In this document: piece by piece, positions 1 through 21,266 of the stretch
Layout: each line of letters starts with the position of its first letter
How positions within the stretch are numbered: the first letter of the stretch is position 1
Assembly (NCBI RefSeq): GCF_000374545.1
Contig: NZ_KB894594.1
Location: 68,596-113,029 of the forward strand
Source of the DNA: Anaeromusa acidaminophila DSM 3853
GTDB taxonomy: Bacteria; Bacillota; Negativicutes; Anaeromusales; Anaeromusaceae
Length of the DNA stretch: 44,434 nt
Direction of reading: 5' to 3'
Translations under genes and position numbers: made by a program
The notes under the pieces: generated by a model
The model's input: only the letters and a program-made list of their open reading frames with translations
What the model was told of the DNA's origin: nothing
The model's database searches: none

Positions 1-636
1 TCTCAAGAGTTTCAAACCCTTATAGGTAGTCTACAAACCGCCAAAGTCATGGCTTCAGGCGTCATTGCTTGCGGGTTTCAAACCCTTATAGGTAGTCTAC
101 AAACGGTGCTGGATCGTGTTATCTGAATGGAAAGAAATCGAGTTTCAAACCCTTATAGGTAGTCTACAAACTTTTTCTCTTCGTACATACCGCCAACTTC
201 AAACTGAGTTTCAAACCCTTATAGGTAGTCTACAAACTTCACCCAATGCTTCACCCCAAACTTCCGCATTATAGTTTCAAACCCTTATAGGTAGTCTACA
301 AACAAAGGCTTTTTTTATGGTTTCTGCTGTCCATGGCTCGTTTCAAACCCTTATAGGTAGTCTACAAACGGACGCAAATGTGTTTAGCTTCATTGCAGTT
401 TCTAAAGTTTCAAACCCTTATAGGTAGTCTACAAACCACCGCCGTGTATAGCGAGTTTTTTGGTTTCAAACCCTGTTTCAAACCCTTATAGGTAGTCTAC
501 AAACTTTCTAGGAGTTCTTGCAGCTCTTCCTCCAATATTTCGTTTCAAACCCTTATAGGTAGTCTACAAACTTACCAGGCAAGGCAATTCCCCCGCACCC
601 TACTTTGTTTCAAACCCTTATAGGTAGTCTACAAAC
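1..636 (-). CRISPR. CRISPR array 1 (type IV), continues off left edge
   Basis: Ten full copies of a 30-nt repeat (plus strand starts GTTTCAAACCC, ends GTCTACAAAC) begin at 9, 75, 142, 208, 274, 340, 407, 475, 542 and 607. Spacers are 35-38 nt. Bases 1-8 are the tail of another spacer, so the array continues to the left. The shared leader lies at the right end, so transcription should run on the minus strand, where the repeat ends in GTTTGAAAC, a normal Class 1 crRNA handle. The unit at 437-474 is abnormal: 26 nt of spacer followed by a 12-nt copy of the repeat end (463-474) abutting the full repeat at 475. Several spacers read as open coding sequence on the minus strand, as expected for mobile-element targets. 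Confidence 0.99.
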
Positions 637-798
637 CCATTTTACTCGCTATTTTACTGCCTATCAAAACAGCCCTAATCAATTATACCATCGACCAGAA
701 ACGATAAAGCCAGATTTTTGCTCGTAGCCGTTGTCGTCGATCCCCCGTACTTTTTACCATATTGGAAATCGACGACAATAGCATTTTGCCATTTGGGC
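637..798 (-). promoter_or_regulatory. CRISPR leader 1 with promoter and dyad
   Basis: The 162 bp between recD and the first repeat is closely similar to the leader of array 2 (20237-20378). On the minus strand a TATAAT -10 box (682-687) lies about 46 nt before the first repeat in both leaders. An inverted repeat with 11-bp arms (731-741 and 768-778, TTGTCGTCGAT with its complement) follows the recD stop codon; the arms are kept in leader 2 with one change while the loop differs. It could terminate recD read-through or bind a protein; which is not known. Confidence 0.8.
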
Positions 799-3210
799 TT
801 AAAAATCCATAACCACCTGAAACCGATTTGTTGATGCATCTTTGGTTTTTCTATTTTTCCATTTTGTTTCTTCAAGGGCTTGGTTAACTAAAAAACCGAA
901 CTTGCTATACGGAGCCATTTGAATCTTTCCAGCCGCCGTTGTCCATATTGACTCATCGCCTATTAGATACACCCTTTTTTGTGCTCGGGTGATGGCCGTA
1001 TACATCATGTTCTGGTTTATACGAGATTTTTCGCTAGCCGGCACAACGAAAACATAGTCGGCTTCAGAGCCTTGCGCCTTGTGGATACTTATTGCATAGG
1101 CCGGTTCAATCCAGCATGATATCTCTTCATACGTATATGGGGATATTTCATGGTCTGGATCATTCCAGCGCACTGTGATACCAGTACCCGTTTCCCCAAC
1201 AATAGTACCTCTCATACCATTAAACACATCTTCGGTGCGTCCTTCATGGCGAAAAAACATTATTTTACGGCGCCCGGTAGTATCCTCAGCATACTCGGCA
1301 TAATCGTTTTGTGTTGCAATAACCGGATCTCCTACCGCAAAGCTACCTGCTGACTCGTCAATTCGCTTGCCTTTTTCATTTAGTTTCGTCCGTAAAAATG
1401 CATTAAGCTGCATGGTTCCCATTTCTTCTTTTCGCTGATCTGAAATGACAAGGATATCCTCATGCTTTATTCCGTTTTCCAAAAGAGCAGCTATTTCCCG
1501 GTATAATGCTTCTTTGTCTCGCTCTATCAGTTGTACGGCTTCCGTAGGCCTAATTTCAAGCGAGTGCTCGTTTCGGACTTGAAGGGCCGCTTCCAACAGT
1601 TCCCTACCCTCTGTCCTAAAAACCGTCTTTAGCTCGGTTACAGGAAGAAGCGATGGGTCTATAACGCGTGCTGCCATCTGGTGGAAAAATCCACTTGGCC
1701 CAATAGCCGGCAGCTGACCGGGATCACCCATGATCACTAAATGAAGTTGCGGTTGCTGTTTAATCGAATGAAGCAACCGGCTAAATACCATGACCGAACA
1801 AAGGCTCATTTCGTCCACAACAATAATGTCTGTATGCTCAAACAGATTTTCCATGTCGCCTTGCCGAGGAAGAAAATCATTTACCCCTAAATCCTCGGTC
1901 ATATGGGTTATGTTCGCAAATCGATGGATGGTTTGAAAATCTTCCTTTCGCAGATTGGCTTTTCCTCCAGCTACGGCCGCCGCCATAGCCGATGGAGCGA
2001 TAACCTTAACCCTCTTACCAATGGCTTGACAATATGAAACCAACGCCTTTATGATATGCGTTTTGCCGGTTCCTGCTTGGCCAACTACTACACTGGTTTT
2101 ATACGCAATTGCATTTTTTAAGGCTTGCTCTTGCTCGCCGGACAGCGGAATATCCTTAAACAATCCCAAATCAATGGAGTATCCATTGTTCGAGTCACCT
2201 ATCCGGTTTGCAAACAACTCTGCCGCCGTACGTTCAGCAAAATAGGCTCCCGTCATATAAATTCCTGAAGCTGCAGCGTTGCCATAGTAATTGCTTTTTT
2301 CCGCGAAGTTTTCTCCTAACGTTTCTGCCACTTGCGAATAGTATCTTGCAGCTTCTTCGCCGCATTCTTTTTTCCCAGAAATAGTTACCTTCGCGCCACC
2401 TTGCTTCATTACGTCCCGGAAGGAGCTAATCAAGAGCCGATTTATAATGATGCTGGGATGGGTATCCTTTGATTTTTTTGCCAACTCCATCATCGCTTTA
2501 TCGCCTTTTGTTTGAACCGCTACATGCGGTGTGGGAATGAAGGTGTTTCCTCTTCTGGCGTTGCTGGCTACTATCTGAGCGACCACTGCCATTGCCTCGA
2601 TTTCTATCGGCAAATTCACGCCCAAATTTTTTGCCAATCGCTTTGCATCAGTTATTGAAAACTCTTCCGTTTCTGCAATGATGAAAGGATTGCTGGCAAT
2701 CAGATCGACAACACCTTCAAACCCCCGTTGCTTGGCTCTTTGGGAAAAGAAAGAAACCAACATCCAGGCGGTTTCTGGTGACTCGCGAAAGCCCGCTTTC
2801 CTAAATAGTTCGTGCACATCGCGGACATCTTGCGTGTATACGTCCGGCAGATCACAAACCGTCCCTTTTGTTCCAGTCAACTGTCCATCGCGCAATCGTT
2901 CTCCATCAACTGCCGTTTTCGAAAACATTTTTCGGATGGATGATTGACGAATAATTTCCCAATCTTGGATATAAAACACCGTGTTTTTCCCAAGTTTTGC
3001 TACTTTCCCTTGGGCGTGAATAACCATGCCCCGCCGCAAACTGTCTTTTTGATTCCGTTTTGCCAGTTTAAACGATATGCTGTCTTTTGCTTCTGCTTCC
3101 ATTATCCCCGAAGGGTCTTTCAGAACGGTAAGCTGGCCATCTGTCTTATATTTGGTTGTTGCCATCGAAAACGAATACACATTGTTAAGATATACGTAGA
3201 CCCAATCCAT
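799..3210 (-). CDS. recD: RecD-family helicase of the type IV CRISPR locus
   Basis: 803-aa SF1B helicase resembling RecD2/TraA helicases. The N-terminal ~200 residues contain a RecD2-like helix-hairpin-helix stretch (ASNPFIIAE). The motor has Walker A GQAGTGKT near residue 375, Walker B VVDEMS near 465, GDPGQLPAIG in motif III, the SF1 motif V segment SIHKAQGSE, and TAITRAQ in motif VI near 740. The ATG at 3210 is chosen because AAAGGAGA lies 10 nt upstream; the TTG at 3219 would leave no room for that site. The gene begins 20 nt after cas6 and is last in the operon before the array. Type IV-A systems carry a DinG (csf4) helicase here; a RecD relative is the mark of subtype IV-D as I know the classification. 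It probably acts with the crRNA-guided complex on DNA. No nuclease domain is visible. Confidence 0.93.
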   Translation of the reverse strand: MDWVYVYLNNVYSFSMATTKYKTDGQLTVLKDPSGIMEAEAKDSISFKLAKRNQKDSLRRGMVIHAQGKVAKLGKNTVFYIQDWEIIRQSSIRKMFSKTAVDGERLRDGQLTGTKGTVCDLPDVYTQDVRDVHELFRKAGFRESPETAWMLVSFFSQRAKQRGFEGVVDLIASNPFIIAETEEFSITDAKRLAKNLGVNLPIEIEAMAVVAQIVASNARRGNTFIPTPHVAVQTKGDKAMMELAKKSKDTHPSIIINRLLISSFRDVMKQGGAKVTISGKKECGEEAARYYSQVAETLGENFAEKSNYYGNAAASGIYMTGAYFAERTAAELFANRIGDSNNGYSIDLGLFKDIPLSGEQEQALKNAIAYKTSVVVGQAGTGKTHIIKALVSYCQAIGKRVKVIAPSAMAAAVAGGKANLRKEDFQTIHRFANITHMTEDLGVNDFLPRQGDMENLFEHTDIIVVDEMSLCSVMVFSRLLHSIKQQPQLHLVIMGDPGQLPAIGPSGFFHQMAARVIDPSLLPVTELKTVFRTEGRELLEAALQVRNEHSLEIRPTEAVQLIERDKEALYREIAALLENGIKHEDILVISDQRKEEMGTMQLNAFLRTKLNEKGKRIDESAGSFAVGDPVIATQNDYAEYAEDTTGRRKIMFFRHEGRTEDVFNGMRGTIVGETGTGITVRWNDPDHEISPYTYEEISCWIEPAYAISIHKAQGSEADYVFVVPASEKSRINQNMMYTAITRAQKRVYLIGDESIWTTAAGKIQMAPYSKFGFLVNQALEETKWKNRKTKDASTNRFQVVMDF

Positions 3211-3230
3211 TTTTTGCAATCTCCTTTCGT

Positions 3231-3899
3231 TTAAACCGGCACCACCAATCCAAACCCTGATCCAGTACGTTCTCCCAGGCCGCCATAGAGCGCAACTTCA
3301 ATAGCCTTGGGTTCACCTGTCAGCTCAAGTACCACGTCACCACGGGCGGGTACCGCGAATTTATAGGGGATACTGCAAGGAAACCCTTTTTGCACGATAC
3401 GAACACCCACCGCATTTGGTAGCAGCTCCATGTTTAAAAACGCATTGGTTCGGCGCACTAGATTTTGGGCCAATAACTTTTTCCAAAGTTCCTCGTCTTG
3501 ATCCAAAAATACCGGCTTCTTTTTACCGTCTTCGCCACGGTAGGAAAGAGCAATAGGAGACAGCGCTTTCACGGTCATTCGACCGCTAATGCGCTGAACT
3601 GGTTGAATCGGAAGAACCTTCTTTACTTCAAATAAATTATTTTCGATCATAATCCCTTGTCCGACCAGTGAGACAGCCCCCTCTTTTAACGCGAGAGCTA
3701 TGTCTTCTCGTACAGACGCAAAGGTAAACATGCCTTGCTGATAAGCCCAAGTATAGGGTTTAAATTTTTCCTTGGCATTATGCAGTTGCTTGGCCAGCGC
3801 TTCGTTCCCGGTATTTAATAACCGCCAAAAAAAGGTTACCGCTTGATCCTTTGAAGCCGGTTCTCCATATTGTTCTACCAAAATTGCAAGTCGGTTCAT
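3231..3899 (-). CDS. cas6: Cas6-type crRNA endoribonuclease
   Basis: 222 aa. The C-terminus has the glycine-rich loop of Cas6 RAMP proteins (YGGLGERTGSGFG, near residues 205-217), which helps grip the repeat RNA. Length fits the family (about 200-260 aa). Role by family: cleaves the CRISPR transcript within each repeat to make crRNAs for the Csf complex. The start codon overlaps the csf3 stop by 4 nt, so the two are translationally coupled. In type IV-A the equivalent gene is csf5; this one looks like a general Cas6. The catalytic residues cannot be assigned from sequence alone, but several histidine, tyrosine and lysine candidates lie in the N-terminal third. Confidence 0.85.
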   Translation of the reverse strand: MNRLAILVEQYGEPASKDQAVTFFWRLLNTGNEALAKQLHNAKEKFKPYTWAYQQGMFTFASVREDIALALKEGAVSLVGQGIMIENNLFEVKKVLPIQPVQRISGRMTVKALSPIALSYRGEDGKKKPVFLDQDEELWKKLLAQNLVRRTNAFLNMELLPNAVGVRIVQKGFPCSIPYKFAVPARGDVVLELTGEPKAIEVALYGGLGERTGSGFGLVVPV

Positions 3900-4744
3900 C
3901 TTTTTGACCGTCCTTTCTTCTTGGTACTACCTTGTGCCTTGCGCTCCTCTTTGGCAATTTCTCGATCCAAAAAGTCTTTTTGTTTTTGGCCCAAAACAGC
4001 GGAGGCCTTTTCCACTTCTTCTTTCCCCGGGAGTGCGGGAAAATTAAAAAAGGACAACGGGGAAATATAGCAATGGTCATAGAGCGCACGGTTCCAATAC
4101 GGCGGCTTATAGCCTACAAAATCAATCAGTTCCTCTTTAATCGGCTCGGTCCAACCGGCAACCGGAATCGGGCGGGCGGGATTTCCTTCTTTCAAGACGC
4201 TCCAATTGGGGCACTCCTTCTCTTTCACATCAACCTTACCTATTTCTCCAAAGCCAATCGACCGCTTGCCGCCAAGATGGCCCAGCTTCCAGATTAGTTT
4301 TGTGAGCTCTCTAAAGTGCTCCTTGTCGGTCACTTGTGCGTAAAAATCAAGATACGGAGTAACTAATTTCCAGTACAGTTCCCGCGCTGCTTGATGTTCG
4401 CCCATTTGATTACTTACATAGGACTTACCTAAGTCTTGTTTTGCAAAGGTTTGCACAAAATCAGCGTGCCGATATATCAGCGTTGGCTCAAGAAACGAAC
4501 CTTCTGCAGCAAAGCTGCTGGAAATTGCAAAAAATGAATCATTAACCAACGTAAATGGCAACTCTGGTTCCGCTAAGTTAGCCGGGTCCATTTCCGCTGG
4601 GGTTTTCACAAGCCCTTTAGACAGGGCCCACGCGTACCCATAAAGCCCATCGCCCTGAATCGGACGGATGGGCTTTACCGCTGGAAAAAGCAACGGCGAT
4701 ACGAGATGAAAACGTACCCGGACGTTATGAATCTGCTTGCTCAT
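3896..4744 (-). CDS. csf3: Csf3 (Cas5-group RAMP subunit)
   Basis: 282 aa. RAMP-fold protein: a beta-rich N-terminus (VRVRFHLVSPLLFPAV) and a glycine-rich loop GGKRSIGFGEIGKV near residues 165-180. In type IV effector complexes Csf3 is the Cas5-like subunit that caps the 5' handle of the crRNA. The ATG at 4744 is preferred over an upstream in-frame ATG because AAAGGAGG lies upstream and the chosen start overlaps the csf1 stop by only 20 nt. It sits between csf1 and cas6, as expected. The fold is clear; the Csf3 label rests on the neighbours, and Csm4-like proteins look similar. Confidence 0.8.
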   Translation of the reverse strand: MSKQIHNVRVRFHLVSPLLFPAVKPIRPIQGDGLYGYAWALSKGLVKTPAEMDPANLAEPELPFTLVNDSFFAISSSFAAEGSFLEPTLIYRHADFVQTFAKQDLGKSYVSNQMGEHQAARELYWKLVTPYLDFYAQVTDKEHFRELTKLIWKLGHLGGKRSIGFGEIGKVDVKEKECPNWSVLKEGNPARPIPVAGWTEPIKEELIDFVGYKPPYWNRALYDHCYISPLSFFNFPALPGKEEVEKASAVLGQKQKDFLDREIAKEERKAQGSTKKKGRSKR

Positions 4745-5456
4745 TAGAAACCTCAGAAACCTCCTTTGTGGCAACGTGCGCAGCCAAATGTGCCGCCAAG
4801 ACAATGGACGTATCCATTGCTTGTTTATAGGCTTGCATTAGTTCCCGAATGTAATAGTTTCGCTTTTGCCACTCGGTTTTCATATACACTGTGGTTGGTT
4901 TCAAATACGAATCAATTTGTTCGAGCATAGATTGAACCGATTGGATAAATTCTGCTCGGTCTACATCAACTACCCCGGAAAGTTCTGTAGAGGACCGAAA
5001 AAACCGCAAACCGGCGATGGTCATTTTTAGCCGTTTTTTTGAAAGATTTACACCGTCAATGGCTTTCCATTGTTGGTGTTTTTGTGTTAATGACGTATTA
5101 TCCCCCCGCAGCAGGATAACGCTGGGGACAGCGACCGCATCGGCGCTGGCGACAATCTTCTCGTAAAAATCAGCAAAGTTCATTTGTTCAATGCTTTCGG
5201 GCGTTGCAATGACCACCGATTGCTTGTCCCAATATTGCTGACGGTTATGCCCTGTTCTAAACCATTCGCAGGCCACACAGCAGCGGTCTTCATCGATCCG
5301 CCGGCAGATGTTTTCATCGGTCCATGTAGTTGACGACAATTCCTGGTGGCTTTTCGATGGCCCAAGGAGTGGGCCGCCGCATACACGGCAGGCCCCCGGC
5401 TCTACTTCTGGGCGATTTCCCAATCCTATATAAATAATCTGAGGTCCGCTATACAT
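4725..5456 (-). CDS. csf1: Csf1 (type IV large/Cas8-like subunit) with zinc finger
   Basis: 243 aa. The N-terminal third has two cysteine pairs, CRVC (near residue 20) and CVAC (near residue 58), matching the zinc-binding module typical of Csf1. The remainder is helical with no recognisable nuclease motif. Csf1 is the signature large-subunit candidate of type IV complexes. The ATG at 5456 follows AAGGAGGGG by about 9 nt and starts 14 nt after csf2 ends; an in-frame ATG at 5552 would overlap csf2 deeply and add a lysine-rich, poorly structured extension. Identification depends on size, zinc motif and position next to csf2. Confidence 0.82.
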   Translation of the reverse strand: MYSGPQIIYIGLGNRPEVEPGACRVCGGPLLGPSKSHQELSSTTWTDENICRRIDEDRCCVACEWFRTGHNRQQYWDKQSVVIATPESIEQMNFADFYEKIVASADAVAVPSVILLRGDNTSLTQKHQQWKAIDGVNLSKKRLKMTIAGLRFFRSSTELSGVVDVDRAEFIQSVQSMLEQIDSYLKPTTVYMKTEWQKRNYYIRELMQAYKQAMDTSIVLAAHLAAHVATKEVSEVSNEQADS

Positions 5457-5469
5457 TAGGCGCCCCTCC

Positions 5470-6498
5470 TTATTTTTCCGCTTCTTTGGCTGCTTTTTTT
5501 GCCGCTTTCGACACATACCCGAACAGCTCCGGCATGGTTTTAATGGCATCAATGATTTCTTCCTTATGTGCCGCTAGATACGCGTCATAGTTTGCAATTG
5601 CCGCAGACGCATCAAACTCTTTAGCATCGCCATCTTCTTCGATTTCATAAAGCTCAAAGGATACAAACCCATGACCGCGGCCGCTCATGCCGCCAACGAC
5701 TCCATTTTCGGAAAGCAAGCCATACATGGCCAAAAAGGCTAACCTGGCACCCTCATTGTCCGTGGTGATGCGCGAAGAGGTTCCAAGAATCGTACCCGCT
5801 GGCAGATACTCGGAGCCATAAATCATGGCTTCTTTCTCTACGCCAATATCGCTTTCTCCAGAAGCATCTTCAATCGCGCCACTTTCCGATCGCCGTGTAT
5901 AGCGAATTTTTTGCAAATGAGCATCTTTCATAAATTCCGCATAGCTTGGAGCCTCGTTTTCAATCTTTTCTGTGAGGGCCAACGGGAATACCGGATCAAA
6001 TAAGCTGGCGGTTTCGCGTAAGTACGGACGCAAAAAGCCGACCCGGGAACTACCTTCGAATTGATGTGCATGAAAAACCATGCCCAGGGCGCCCAGCATC
6101 GGAATTGTATCACGAAGCTTTTTGTATTTTTCTGGCGCCGCTGCTTTCGCGGTCATGCCAGCCGGGGTAACCCCGCCCGCGCGGAATGCCGTTTGAACAC
6201 GGCGTGCCAAAACTTCTTGTTTTGGAAACAGCTCCCCAACCGTAACGCCCAGTTGAGCAAACGTATGATCAAACAGAAGGCGACGGCCCAGGCCGCGTAC
6301 ACCGTTACCAGACACAACCGGAATGCGCAGCGTCAACGATTCGCCGTTATGTTGGCACACCACCGTTTCGGTGCGCCGTGGTTTAACATTAGGGTTTTGG
6401 CCTTCGTCAAGGATCTCCGAGTGCACAATGCTCGAAAGAGCGGTCACCGTTCCGACTAGCTGAGTCGTTTTGTTTTCCACTACCCCGTTTTCTGTCAT
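5470..6498 (-). CDS. csf2: Csf2 (Cas7-group backbone subunit)
   Basis: 342 aa. Cas7-family protein: VSGNGVRGLGRR near residue 65 and GGMSGRGHGFVSFELY near 275 are the glycine-rich turns of the Cas7/RAMP backbone. Length fits Csf2. Several copies should polymerise along the crRNA to form the type IV filament. First gene of the cas operon; the ATG at 6498 has GGAGG 8 nt upstream, whereas the longer form from 6528 has no such site. Bases 5891-5913 match a spacer of array 1 with one mismatch (see findings). The C-terminus is rich in Lys and Ala, probably a flexible tail. Confidence 0.9.
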   Translation of the reverse strand: MTENGVVENKTTQLVGTVTALSSIVHSEILDEGQNPNVKPRRTETVVCQHNGESLTLRIPVVSGNGVRGLGRRLLFDHTFAQLGVTVGELFPKQEVLARRVQTAFRAGGVTPAGMTAKAAAPEKYKKLRDTIPMLGALGMVFHAHQFEGSSRVGFLRPYLRETASLFDPVFPLALTEKIENEAPSYAEFMKDAHLQKIRYTRRSESGAIEDASGESDIGVEKEAMIYGSEYLPAGTILGTSSRITTDNEGARLAFLAMYGLLSENGVVGGMSGRGHGFVSFELYEIEEDGDAKEFDASAAIANYDAYLAAHKEEIIDAIKTMPELFGYVSKAAKKAAKEAEK

Positions 6499-6535
6499 CC
6501 TAATCCCCTCCATAATTTGGTTTTCCACTTTTTAT

Positions 6536-17725: not shown

Positions 17726-19096
17726 TTAGTGAATAGCCATTTCAATTTCAGACCAAGACAGTTTCGCAACGCCAGTATCGCTGAGGATTAGTTCTTTGGC
17801 CGCTCGCGTAACCGCCGTATATAGCCACCTAGCATTATCCTTAAAGCAATCCTGTTTAACAAACACCTTAGCCCACTGGCTGCCTTGGGACTTATGCGCT
17901 GTTACCGCATAGCCATACGTGCATATGGACACTTCTTTGTCTAACTCATTCTTTTTAGTCTTGGTATTAAGCGTAACCCAATCACTGGGGAACAACGAAA
18001 GGTCAGCCACTTGGGCATGATAGACGCTTGATTTTTCGACTTCCGGCAGAAGAAGGATCTTGTGGTCTTTCTCTTTGTCCACCAACAAATAGGCTTTTTC
18101 CATCCACTCTCCCGCCCCGCTAACCAAAGCTGACGCGATCCCTGATTGAAGCGGCAAGTTAATTTCCTCTAACACTTCAAGTTCCTCTAAAAGAAGTCGA
18201 TCCCCATTCACGCATTTTTGGCCATTGCTGATGGAAAGAAGCACATCTCCTTTTTGAGGCGGTTCTACCTCTCCAAATTTTGCTCTTCTTGCCCGAATGT
18301 TAAGAGCCTTACGGGTACGATTCGATCCCACAATACAAACGGCATCTTCTTCGTTTTTAATGGCTTCTAAGAACGCTGTGTCGGCGGGGAACGTCCGCAT
18401 GATCGTTACATCACCGCAGGATTCTTGGGGAATAAAGACTCTTCTTTCTTTGCGCAATGCGGTTGCAAACATGAGAATTTGGCTTTCCGCAGCTTGTCGC
18501 CGTACTTCATCTAATGCTTCGTCAGGCTGCTCTAAAATATGAGGATCTTTCCCCACCGGCTCTAATTGATAGGAATCACCAATATAGAGCAGTTTGGCCT
18601 GACTTCCGCAAACCTGAGTTTTTAAATCACTATGAAGGTCTTCGTTAACTAAACTTCCTTCATCGCAAATCACCACATCATCACTGCTAAAAGACACTCT
18701 TGGAATCCAAGCTCCTTTTTCATCGGGATGACCATAGAGCAAACTGTGCAAGGTTCTAAAGTTAGCCCGGATTTCCTCGGGCATCTTTTCTTTTAATACT
18801 TTTACCGCCTGGTTGGTAGGTGCCACTACATAGACAGTTTTCCCTTTGCTAAGAGCAAAATTGACTATGTTTTCGACAATGGTTGTTTTGCCCGTTCCCG
18901 CATAACCGGCCAAGGTAAACTGAAAATGCAGCGCCGATTGCAAAAACATTGCAATTGCCTTTAACGCTCTTTTTTGTCCTTCGGTATAGCGCAGATACGT
19001 GCTGCGTTGGTATAAAATCCGGTCATTGGTTCGTTCTAGTTTTTTTATATCCAGCTCTGCAGCTGCATTGTCTGGACCGTTTTCAAATAGCTTCAT
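17726..19096 (-). CDS. Dda/RecD-like SF1B helicase
   Basis: 456 aa. Walker A GYAGTGKTT near residue 65, motif Ia VAPTNQAVKVL, Walker B CDEGSLV near 145, GDSYQLEPVG motif III, TAHKSQGSQW motif V near 400, and YTAVTRA motif VI near 430. Compact size and order match phage-T4 Dda-type 5'-3' helicases, which load on replication forks and strip proteins. Distinct from the CRISPR RecD at 799, which is almost twice as long. A TATAAT (about 40 nt upstream) and GGAGGGG precede the ATG. Followed by ligA with a 24-nt gap: likely one transcript. Confidence 0.9.
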   Translation of the reverse strand: MKLFENGPDNAAAELDIKKLERTNDRILYQRSTYLRYTEGQKRALKAIAMFLQSALHFQFTLAGYAGTGKTTIVENIVNFALSKGKTVYVVAPTNQAVKVLKEKMPEEIRANFRTLHSLLYGHPDEKGAWIPRVSFSSDDVVICDEGSLVNEDLHSDLKTQVCGSQAKLLYIGDSYQLEPVGKDPHILEQPDEALDEVRRQAAESQILMFATALRKERRVFIPQESCGDVTIMRTFPADTAFLEAIKNEEDAVCIVGSNRTRKALNIRARRAKFGEVEPPQKGDVLLSISNGQKCVNGDRLLLEELEVLEEINLPLQSGIASALVSGAGEWMEKAYLLVDKEKDHKILLLPEVEKSSVYHAQVADLSLFPSDWVTLNTKTKKNELDKEVSICTYGYAVTAHKSQGSQWAKVFVKQDCFKDNARWLYTAVTRAAKELILSDTGVAKLSWSEIEMAIH

Positions 19097-19272: not shown

Positions 19273-20236
19273 GTTTTCATCCCTTATAGGTATTCTTTAT
19301 ACCCGACTTCTAGATTTTTGTCTGCCGATTTTCATCATGGTTTTAATCCCTTATAGGTAGACTACAACCCACTCTTCACATGCAATATTGGCCATTGAAC
19401 GTTCCTGCTTCAAACCCTTATAGGTGATCTTCATACATGCCATTCACGCGGCGTTTTGATTCAACTCGCACATTTCAACCCCTCATAGGTGGTCTTTAAA
19501 CAACTTCTGGTATTGGCGAGGCAACTTATGTGTACATATTTCCACCCCTCATAGGTAGTTTTCATACTTGGAATTTGATGGCAGGTAGTTTTCCGCCGCA
19601 ACACGGTTTCAATCCCTTATAGGTAGTCTTTAAACAACATCGTAGATGTCGCTAAAAGATGCGTATTGGCCGTTTCAAACCCTTATAGGTAGTCTTTAAA
19701 CGAAGCGTCTGGCGGTCCACAGCGTCCAGGTATTTAGAACCGTTTCAAACCCTTATAGGTAGTCTTTAAACAGAAGTACCGCGATTGCTGAACAAAGCGA
19801 AGCAAATGCGTTTCAAACCCTTATAGGTAGTCTTTAAACGTTCCACCTGTAGCAGCCGTACCGCTGCCACCGCCAGTTTCAAACCCTTATAGGTAGTCTT
19901 TAAACGCTGGATCATAATAACTTTGGCCCTCAATTTGCTGAGTTTCAAACCCTTATAGGTAGTCTTTAAACGGACTGAGTGGAAAACAGGCCGCCCGGGT
20001 CGACCGGGGTTTCAAACCCTTATAGGTAGTCTTTAAACTTTTTCTGGCAGGGGGCTAGCCGTGATTTGGTTGCTGTTTCAAACCCTTATAGGTAGTCTTT
20101 AAACTGAAGGCTTGTATTTTATTGTTTTTTCGGTTATTCGAGTTTCAAACCCTTATAGGTAGTCTTTAAACCTGTAGAGCCGCTGGCATCGGTTCCATTC
20201 GATTGAGTTTCAAACCCTTATAGGTAGTCTTTAAAC
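19273..20236 (-). CRISPR. CRISPR array 2 (15 repeats, decayed trailer end)
   Basis: Thirty-nt repeats start at 19273, 19340, 19407, 19472, 19538, 19606, 19672, 19742, 19810, 19876, 19942, 20009, 20075, 20142 and 20207; spacers are 35-40 nt. The nine from 19672 are identical and differ from array 1 at two positions (ending GTCTTTAAAC instead of GTCTACAAAC). The first five are heavily mutated and the sixth has one change, all at the leader-distal end, as expected for the oldest units. Leader at the right end, terminator at the left. Several spacers read as Gly/Ser/Thr-rich coding sequence, reminiscent of phage structural proteins. No cas gene is adjacent, so it must use the Csf proteins at 3.2-6.5 kb. 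Confidence 0.99.
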
Positions 20237-20378
20237 CCATTTTATCCGCTTTTTTACTGCCTATCAAAACAGCCCTAATCAATTATACCATTATCCAGAA
20301 ACGATAAAGCCATATTTTCTCTCGTGTCATTTGTCGTTGATCCCCAGGAGCAATTACGCTACTCCAAATCGACGACAT
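20237..20378 (-). promoter_or_regulatory. CRISPR leader 2
   Basis: Near-copy of leader 1: the same TATAAT (20282-20287) at the same distance from the first repeat and the same dyad (arms 20332-20341 and 20368-20377). Divergence is concentrated in the dyad loop and between dyad and -10 box. It starts right at the stop codon of the XseA-like gene. Confidence 0.8.
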
Positions 20379-21266
20379 TTATTTGCCAACAATTTTTAAA
20401 ATTAAGATCACAAAGAGAATTACTGCAAGAATAAATACCCATCGTTTGTACTGATTTACCTGTTTTTGTCGTTCTCTTTCTGAAGCCATTTTATTCAGCA
20501 ACTCTGCAGCCGCGGTTGGCGTGGAGCATCGCACGTCTGCTACTTCTTCACACAACAGATAATCGCCTTCATGGCCGATTCCGGTGATGACTGGGATTTT
20601 CGACTTTGCAATCGCCAACAGCAAAGTTGGGTGGTTATATTCGAATAAATCATTGGGACTTCCACCACCGCGGACAATAACAATACAATCATAGCCTCCC
20701 CGGACATTGATTTCACTGATTTGCAATGCAATGTCTTCACTCACGTTGGCACCTTGCATTTTGGTTGAAAATAAATCAAATTGTCCAGTCTTTAACGTTG
20801 AACAAAAATCCCCATATCCATGAATGCTTTCGTTTGATATCAATGCGATTGAATGACAGACGGGCGGGAGGCTTTTTTTATTTCGATGGATTAGCTCATA
20901 GTGTTCCTTTCTCCATTTTTTGAGTTGGTCTGGCATATTACCATTGCCTACATACTGTATTGACTCCGCGATCAACAAAATAGTCCCATTTTTAGTTAGA
21001 GAGATTTGCCCACTTATCTGTACTTCATCATTAACATTGATATCATCAGAGAATACCCAAACATTATCATAAGCTAAAACCGTTAGGTTAGCTGATTCTT
21101 TGCCGTGCGCTTCGGCTAACGTTATAAACAAACTCGCTTCCCATGGAGAAACTCGCACCACCGTTCCCTTCACGGAAAACTTTTTCCCAGCGAACGCCTG
21201 TCTAATTGGTTCCCTTAAAGACCGAAAAAAAGAAAAGATAGATTGCCCACTATTTGAATCATACAT
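20379..21266 (-). CDS. Short XseA-like protein with C-terminal membrane anchor
   Basis: 295 aa. Residues 1-105 form an OB-fold like that of exonuclease VII large subunit; residues 120-265 match the XseA catalytic domain, including VRGGGSPNDLFEYN, GIGHEGDYLL and VADVRCSTPTAAAELL. Normal XseA is about 400-450 aa with a long coiled coil that binds XseB. Here that region is missing and replaced by a basic linker and a hydrophobic helix (about 275-292, VFILAVILFVILILKIV). The stop is clean, so this looks like a designed tail-anchored form, not decay. No xseB is visible. Its start overlaps the 129-aa gene by 8 nt, and its stop abuts CRISPR leader 2. Confidence 0.85.
   Translation of the reverse strand: MYDSNSGQSIFSFFRSLREPIRQAFAGKKFSVKGTVVRVSPWEASLFITLAEAHGKESANLTVLAYDNVWVFSDDINVNDEVQISGQISLTKNGTILLIAESIQYVGNGNMPDQLKKWRKEHYELIHRNKKSLPPVCHSIALISNESIHGYGDFCSTLKTGQFDLFSTKMQGANVSEDIALQISEINVRGGYDCIVIVRGGGSPNDLFEYNHPTLLLAIAKSKIPVITGIGHEGDYLLCEEVADVRCSTPTAAAELLNKMASERERQKQVNQYKRWVFILAVILFVILILKIVGK

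What the first reader, a model, noticed from the sequence alone, without database searches (positions are those of the whole stretch)
437..474. Spacer matching the locus's own csf2, broken by a duplicated repeat end
Bases 440-462 match csf2 at 5891-5913 in 22 of 23 positions; the mismatch (455 vs 5906) and the next difference at 439 (Arg codon third base) look like allelic variants. The source was probably csf2 of a related rival plasmid. The spacer is also abnormal: between handle and csf2 match, a 12-nt copy of the repeat's crRNA-side end is inserted, which would put non-matching bases in the seed. This may be how self-targeting was disarmed, or a second handle. The crRNA would have csf2-mRNA sense and so could pair only with csf2 template DNA.
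Basis: partly seen in the sequence, partly recalled or inferred. Interest (0 to 1): 0.9.

Follow-up and report, generated by a model that had tools for sequence, protein, structure and literature searches.

The report
CRISPR spacer copied from CRISPR array
On a bacterial plasmid, one CRISPR memory unit appears to have been copied not from an invader's gene directly but from the repeat-spacer junction of another, kindred plasmid's CRISPR array, which itself held a memory against the csf2 gene of this kind of CRISPR system; it looks unable to attack the plasmid's own csf2.

Summary
Spacer 437-474 of a type IV-D array on a Rep_3/ParA plasmid (class Negativicutes) matches the locus's own csf2 at 22 of 23 core positions (23 of 26 over the stretch), and its other 12 nt are an exact copy of the repeat's crRNA-side end. 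Both are far beyond chance. I read the cause differently. The 38-mer as a whole has normal spacer length (157 comparable spacers: 34-40 nt), so 'a 26-nt spacer plus an insertion' is the odd reading. The simplest account is a prespacer cut from the repeat-spacer junction of another CRISPR array that carried a csf2-directed spacer. The 12-mer is exact only for this plasmid's repeats; near-identical host arrays end differently. In csf2 frame it contains a stop codon, so it is not csf2 sequence. The host's only Cas1 belongs to a Cas9-like locus with 30-nt spacers, so capture probably happened in another host. The crRNA should not act on the resident csf2: its seed is mismatched. Its only possible full match is the donor array. 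No donor array or rival csf2 allele was found. Cas-directed spacers and spacer uptake from CRISPR loci are both known; I found no report of the combination in type IV.

The parts
437..474 (-). The 38-nt spacer (crRNA sense AGGGTTTGAAAC|CAAAAAACTCGCTATACACGGCGGTG)
   Evidence: Direct sequence and array register
463..474 (-). 12 nt identical to the crRNA-side (3') end of the repeat; occupies guide positions 1-12, including the seed
   Evidence: the exact 12-mer occurs 21 times on contig C13, one strand only
437..462 (-). 26 nt matching csf2 23 of 26 (22 of 23 core)
5888..5913 (-). Protospacer-like stretch in csf2, codons of QKIRYTRRS
9..636 (-). Window part of CRISPR array 1 (10 repeats, 9 spacers); continues left to C13:68137 across a 429-base run of N
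637..800 (-). Leader of array 1, shared with array 2
475..504 (-). Repeat on the leader side of the spacer; its last 12 nt are the duplicated stretch
5470..6528 (-). csf2 (Cas7)
   Evidence: PADLOC Csf2_0_IV E 1.7e-39
4725..5552 (-). csf1 (Cas8-like)
   Evidence: PADLOC Csf1 E 8.4e-59
3896..4804 (-). csf3 (Cas5)
   Evidence: PADLOC Csf3_0_IV E 3.3e-25
3231..3899 (-). cas6
   Evidence: TIGR01877 above its cut-off
799..3219 (-). RecD-like helicase, mark of the IV-D variant
   Evidence: PADLOC RecD_0_IVD E 3e-84
19273..20236 (-). Array 2, main repeat with the same 12-nt end; left-end repeats degenerate

Best explanation
The 38-nt unit is one ordinary spacer whose prespacer was cut from the repeat-spacer junction of a CRISPR array: 12 nt of repeat end plus the first 26 nt of a spacer directed at csf2 of a closely related type IV-D plasmid. 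A host Cas1-Cas2, probably of a type I-B-like system with near-identical repeats, inserted it in trans (inferred). The resulting crRNA has repeat sequence at guide positions 1-12 and csf2 sequence at 13-38, so it should not open an R-loop on the resident csf2 and is harmless to its own plasmid (inferred from IV-A seed rules). Its only full 38/38 match would be the donor array, where its 5' neighbour is internal repeat sequence (CCTATA) rather than the protective repeat end. Shown: the sequence, match statistics, length argument, specificity of the 12-mer, absence of a suitable Cas1 in this genome. Inferred: the capture event, donor identity, inertness.
For: 38 nt is within the normal range: 157 comparable spacers from the two plasmid arrays, two other type IV arrays and seven array regions of other Negativicutes are 34-40 nt, none 33 or less, 17% are 38. 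The 12-mer plus 26-mer are in exactly the phase of a repeat followed by a spacer start. AGGGTTTGAAAC is the end of the main repeats of both plasmid arrays, whereas other Negativicutes arrays with similar repeats end mostly AGGGATTGAAAC, AGGATTTGAAAC or AGGAATTGAAAC, pointing to a donor of the IV-D plasmid kind. In csf2 frame the 12-mer reads RV*N with a TGA stop and matches the csf2 flank at 2 of 12, so it is not a csf2 allele. Twelve nt exceeds the 8-nt handle expected of a mature crRNA, so a reverse-transcribed crRNA is an unlikely source (own knowledge of Cas6 processing). Uptake of spacers at active CRISPR loci is documented (PMC8406132, PMC7521656). The host's only Cas1 lies beside a Cas9-size gene with 36-nt repeats and 30-nt spacers, while relatives with similar repeats have Cas1 in the genome and I-B or III-B cas genes near the arrays examined. 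The IV-A seed is positions 1-5 and 7-8 (PMC11127173).
Against: No donor array was found: the 26-mer with up to 3 mismatches occurs in 380 class genomes only here and in the resident csf2, and IMG/VR has no exact copy of the core or of the junction. None of the other comparable spacers carries a repeat fragment, so such captures are rare. The PAM is unknown; neither ATA (array junction) nor TTG (csf2) could be tested. Roughly six or seven units of array 1 are hidden by Ns, so an intact parent spacer could sit in the same array.
Confidence: 0.6

Rival explanations
1. A csf2 spacer was shortened to 26 nt and the last 12 nt of the neighbouring repeat were duplicated in tandem by slippage or repair; this broke the seed and ended self-targeting.
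For: The 12-mer is a perfect tandem copy adjoining the intact repeat; losing self-targeting would be selected.
Against: Needs two events that by chance restore normal length; no spacer of 33 nt or less in 157 (95% upper bound 1.9%); no microhomology at the duplication borders (sequence).
Confidence: 0.2
2. The guide acts on csf2: it represses its own operon through partial pairing, or represses csf2 of rival IV-D plasmids.
For: 26 contiguous guide positions pair with csf2 with 3 mismatches; type IV-A systems repress gene expression and natural self-targeting guides exist (PMC11551745 and PMC11656645).
Against: All pairing is in the PAM-distal part; guide positions 1-12 match 2 of 12; IV-A needs positions 1-5 and 7-8; if re-registered on the duplicate handle, position 8 is still mismatched; the target is well inside the gene, not at a promoter.
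Confidence: 0.1
3. Short-read assembly artefact at an array break.
For: The assembly has a run of N inside the same array, ending at the left edge of the window.
Against: Repeat-graph errors would exchange whole repeats, not a 12-nt piece; removing the piece would leave a 26-nt spacer, itself unprecedented.
Confidence: 0.07

Closest known systems
'Anti-CRISPR' spacers of E. coli CRISPR3 against Ypest-subtype cas genes, Touchon and Rocha 2010 (PMC2886076)
   Same: CRISPR spacers that match cas genes of their own subtype, proposed to act against incoming CRISPR-bearing elements
   Different: There the matched cas genes are absent and the array is cas-less and chromosomal; here csf2 is present, the array is on a plasmid beside its cas genes, and the guide's first 12 nt are repeat sequence
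Spacer uptake at active CRISPR loci (E. coli, Pyrococcus, Haloferax; cited in PMC8406132 and PMC7521656)
   Same: CRISPR locus DNA as a source of prespacers
   Different: Those are laboratory adaptation data mapped to loci; here a natural spacer spans a repeat-spacer junction, and the donor spacer is against a type IV cas gene
Type IV-A plasmid CRISPR-Cas systems that take spacers in trans and target other plasmids (review PMC11656645)
   Same: Plasmid-borne, no own Cas1, trans acquisition inferred, inter-plasmid targets
   Different: RecD instead of DinG; PAM and targets of IV-D unknown; usual targets are conjugative plasmids, not csf genes

Membership tests
Type IV-D CRISPR-Cas | csf1, csf2, csf3 and cas6 in one operon | tested here: met
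Type IV-D CRISPR-Cas | RecD-like helicase in place of DinG | tested here: met
   PADLOC RecD_0_IVD E 3e-84; definition in PMC11127173
Type IV-D CRISPR-Cas | Plasmid-borne | tested here: met
   Rep_3 initiator and ParA-like genes on the contig; circularity not shown
Spacer directed at a cas gene | Match to a cas gene beyond chance | tested here: met
   22/23
Spacer directed at a cas gene | Seed-proximal pairing and PAM that allow interference | tested here: not met
   Against the resident csf2, guide positions 1-12 match 2 of 12; PAM unknown
Array-derived spacer | Contiguous repeat end plus spacer start at normal spacer length | tested here: met
Array-derived spacer | Donor array with the full junction identified | tested here: inconclusive
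   Not found; part of array 1 is unsequenced

The most novel reading that the evidence does not exclude
The spacer is a working weapon against another CRISPR array: its 38-nt guide perfectly matches the repeat-spacer junction of a rival IV-D plasmid's array that targets csf2, where the 5' flank is internal repeat sequence rather than the self-protecting repeat end, so the plasmid silences the very memory aimed at its kind.
Probability: 0.1. Interest if true: 0.8.

Novelty: new variant of a known kind. Interest (0 to 1): 0.45.

Why it matters
It looks like a fossil of conflict among type IV-D plasmids: one such array once held a spacer against csf2, the core subunit of this rare system, and a piece of that array was itself taken up as memory. 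It suggests that a plasmid system without its own Cas1 can end up with CRISPR arrays as targets, and it shows how a cas-directed spacer can sit beside its own intact target gene without effect. If the guide works on the donor array, one plasmid's immune memory would be targeted by another's.

Tried and rejected
Better full-length match elsewhere: none in plasmids (best 63% coverage, E 1 or worse), phages, IMG/VR exact cores or 380 class genomes with up to 3 mismatches. Close csf2 homologue: none in plasmids, IMG/VR or genome contigs with the single-protein query; the closest found is about 40% identical in protein, too far to compare alleles. Csf2 allele as source of the 12-mer: rejected (in-frame stop, 2 of 12). 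Host I-B/III-B array as donor of the 12-mer: disfavoured by 1-2 differences at the repeat end. PAM from other spacers: four further spacers were looked up in phages, plasmids or IMG/VR without a hit. No other spacer in the two arrays matches the contig beyond chance. Conservation of Ile at the mismatched codon: the column is variable among distant Csf2 proteins, so the I/T difference says nothing. Folding of the duplicate was not informative.

Full report
The finding is real. Array 1 (window 9-636) has ten identical 30-nt repeats; the unit after the repeat at 407 is 38 nt long and reads, in the transcribed sense, AGGGTTTGAAAC CAAAAAACTCGCTATACACGGCGGTG. The second part matches csf2 at 5888-5913 in 23 of 26 positions, 22 of 23 in the core. 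Against the 113-kb contig this scores 20, where 300 shuffles reached 14 at most. The first part is identical to the end of the repeat.

Orientation. Two arrays on the contig, this one and 19273-20236, share a leader on their right side, and the repeats at the left end of array 2 are degenerate. Both facts place the leader on the right and the crRNAs on the minus strand, as for the cas operon. The guide therefore has csf2-mRNA sense and could pair only with the template DNA strand. A promoter-like pair in the leader is a consensus match only.

Context. The operon csf2-csf1-csf3-cas6-recD is type IV-D by PADLOC models and by the published description of that subtype (PMC11127173). The contig carries Rep_3 and ParA-like genes, so it is a plasmid, though its ends do not overlap. 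The genome, 99.9% complete, has one Cas1, next to a Cas9-size gene and an array with 36-nt repeats and 30-nt spacers. That machinery would not make 35-40 nt spacers, so the plasmid's spacers were probably acquired elsewhere in trans. Some other Negativicutes carry arrays with near-identical repeats and the same spacer lengths, with Cas1 in the genome and, where examined, type I-B or III-B genes near the arrays.

Why a single captured junction. If the csf2 part were a spacer by itself it would be 26 nt. Among 157 comparable spacers the range is 34-40 nt, none at 33 or less, and 38 nt makes up 17%. The whole 38-mer is thus a normal spacer, and what needs explaining is a prespacer consisting of repeat end plus spacer start. 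DNA of a CRISPR array with a csf2-directed spacer has exactly this order and phase. The 12-mer cannot be csf2 coding sequence: in frame it reads RV*N, and only 2 of 12 bases agree with the resident flank. It is longer than the 8-nt handle of a mature crRNA, so copied crRNA is an unlikely source (own knowledge). It is exact for the two arrays of this plasmid but differs by one or two bases from the repeat ends of the host arrays examined. The donor was therefore most likely an array of the same plasmid kind. Laboratory adaptation studies report spacer uptake at active CRISPR loci (PMC8406132, PMC7521656). No other spacer examined carries a repeat fragment, so such captures are rare.

What it does. 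For IV-A the seed is guide positions 1-5 and 7-8 (PMC11127173). Here positions 1-12 are repeat sequence and do not pair with csf2; csf2 pairing is confined to positions 13-38, with mismatches at 20, 36 and 38. Even if the duplicate served as a handle and the guide began at CAAAAAAC, position 8 would be mismatched to the resident csf2. The plasmid is thus doubly safe from this guide; I infer it is inert on its own csf2. The seed does pair with the end of the main repeats of both arrays, which suggests that internal-repeat flanks are either not accepted as a PAM or are tolerated. The full 38-nt match would be the donor array. Whether the complex acts there depends on the unknown IV-D PAM.

Where the source is. 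No csf2 with the spacer's variants and no donor array was found in plasmids, phages, IMG/VR or 380 class genomes. The closest csf2 found is 40% identical in protein. The rival-plasmid origin is therefore an inference from the sequence, and a resident csf2 that changed after capture is not excluded. A 429-base run of N inside array 1 (C13:68167-68595) hides perhaps six or seven units, and the parent spacer may lie there.

Standing. Cas-directed spacers are known (PMC2886076) and so is uptake from CRISPR loci; the combination in a type IV system, next to the intact target gene, I did not find described in the papers searched, which are open-access only. I rate it a new variant of a known kind, of moderate interest, with a small chance of the more striking reading that one plasmid's guide attacks another's CRISPR array.

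Noticed in passing
window 731-741 / 768-778 and the array 2 leader (within 20237-20400): Both array leaders carry an inverted repeat TTGTCGTCGAT...ATCGACGACAA (one changed base in array 2) with different sequence between the arms; possibly a regulator or integration-host site.
   Followed up: partly
G000:C13:68167-68595, just left of the window: A 429-base run of N lies inside array 1 and hides about six or seven repeat-spacer units.
   Followed up: partly
window 19273-20236: Second array without adjacent csf genes, main repeat differing at 2 positions, with strongly degenerate leader-distal repeats.
   Followed up: partly
window 17726-19096: A second, shorter RecD-like helicase gene (456 aa) lies beside array 2.
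   Followed up: no
L025 (G348:C108), about 8.9-10.6 kb: Three separate partial csf2-like matches in a row, as if csf2 were duplicated or split in a rumen Veillonellaceae genome.
   Followed up: no
L029 (G000:C30) 1-5000: Host locus with a 1100-aa Cas9-size gene, Cas1 and an array of 36-nt repeats; its spacers were not compared with the plasmid.
   Followed up: no
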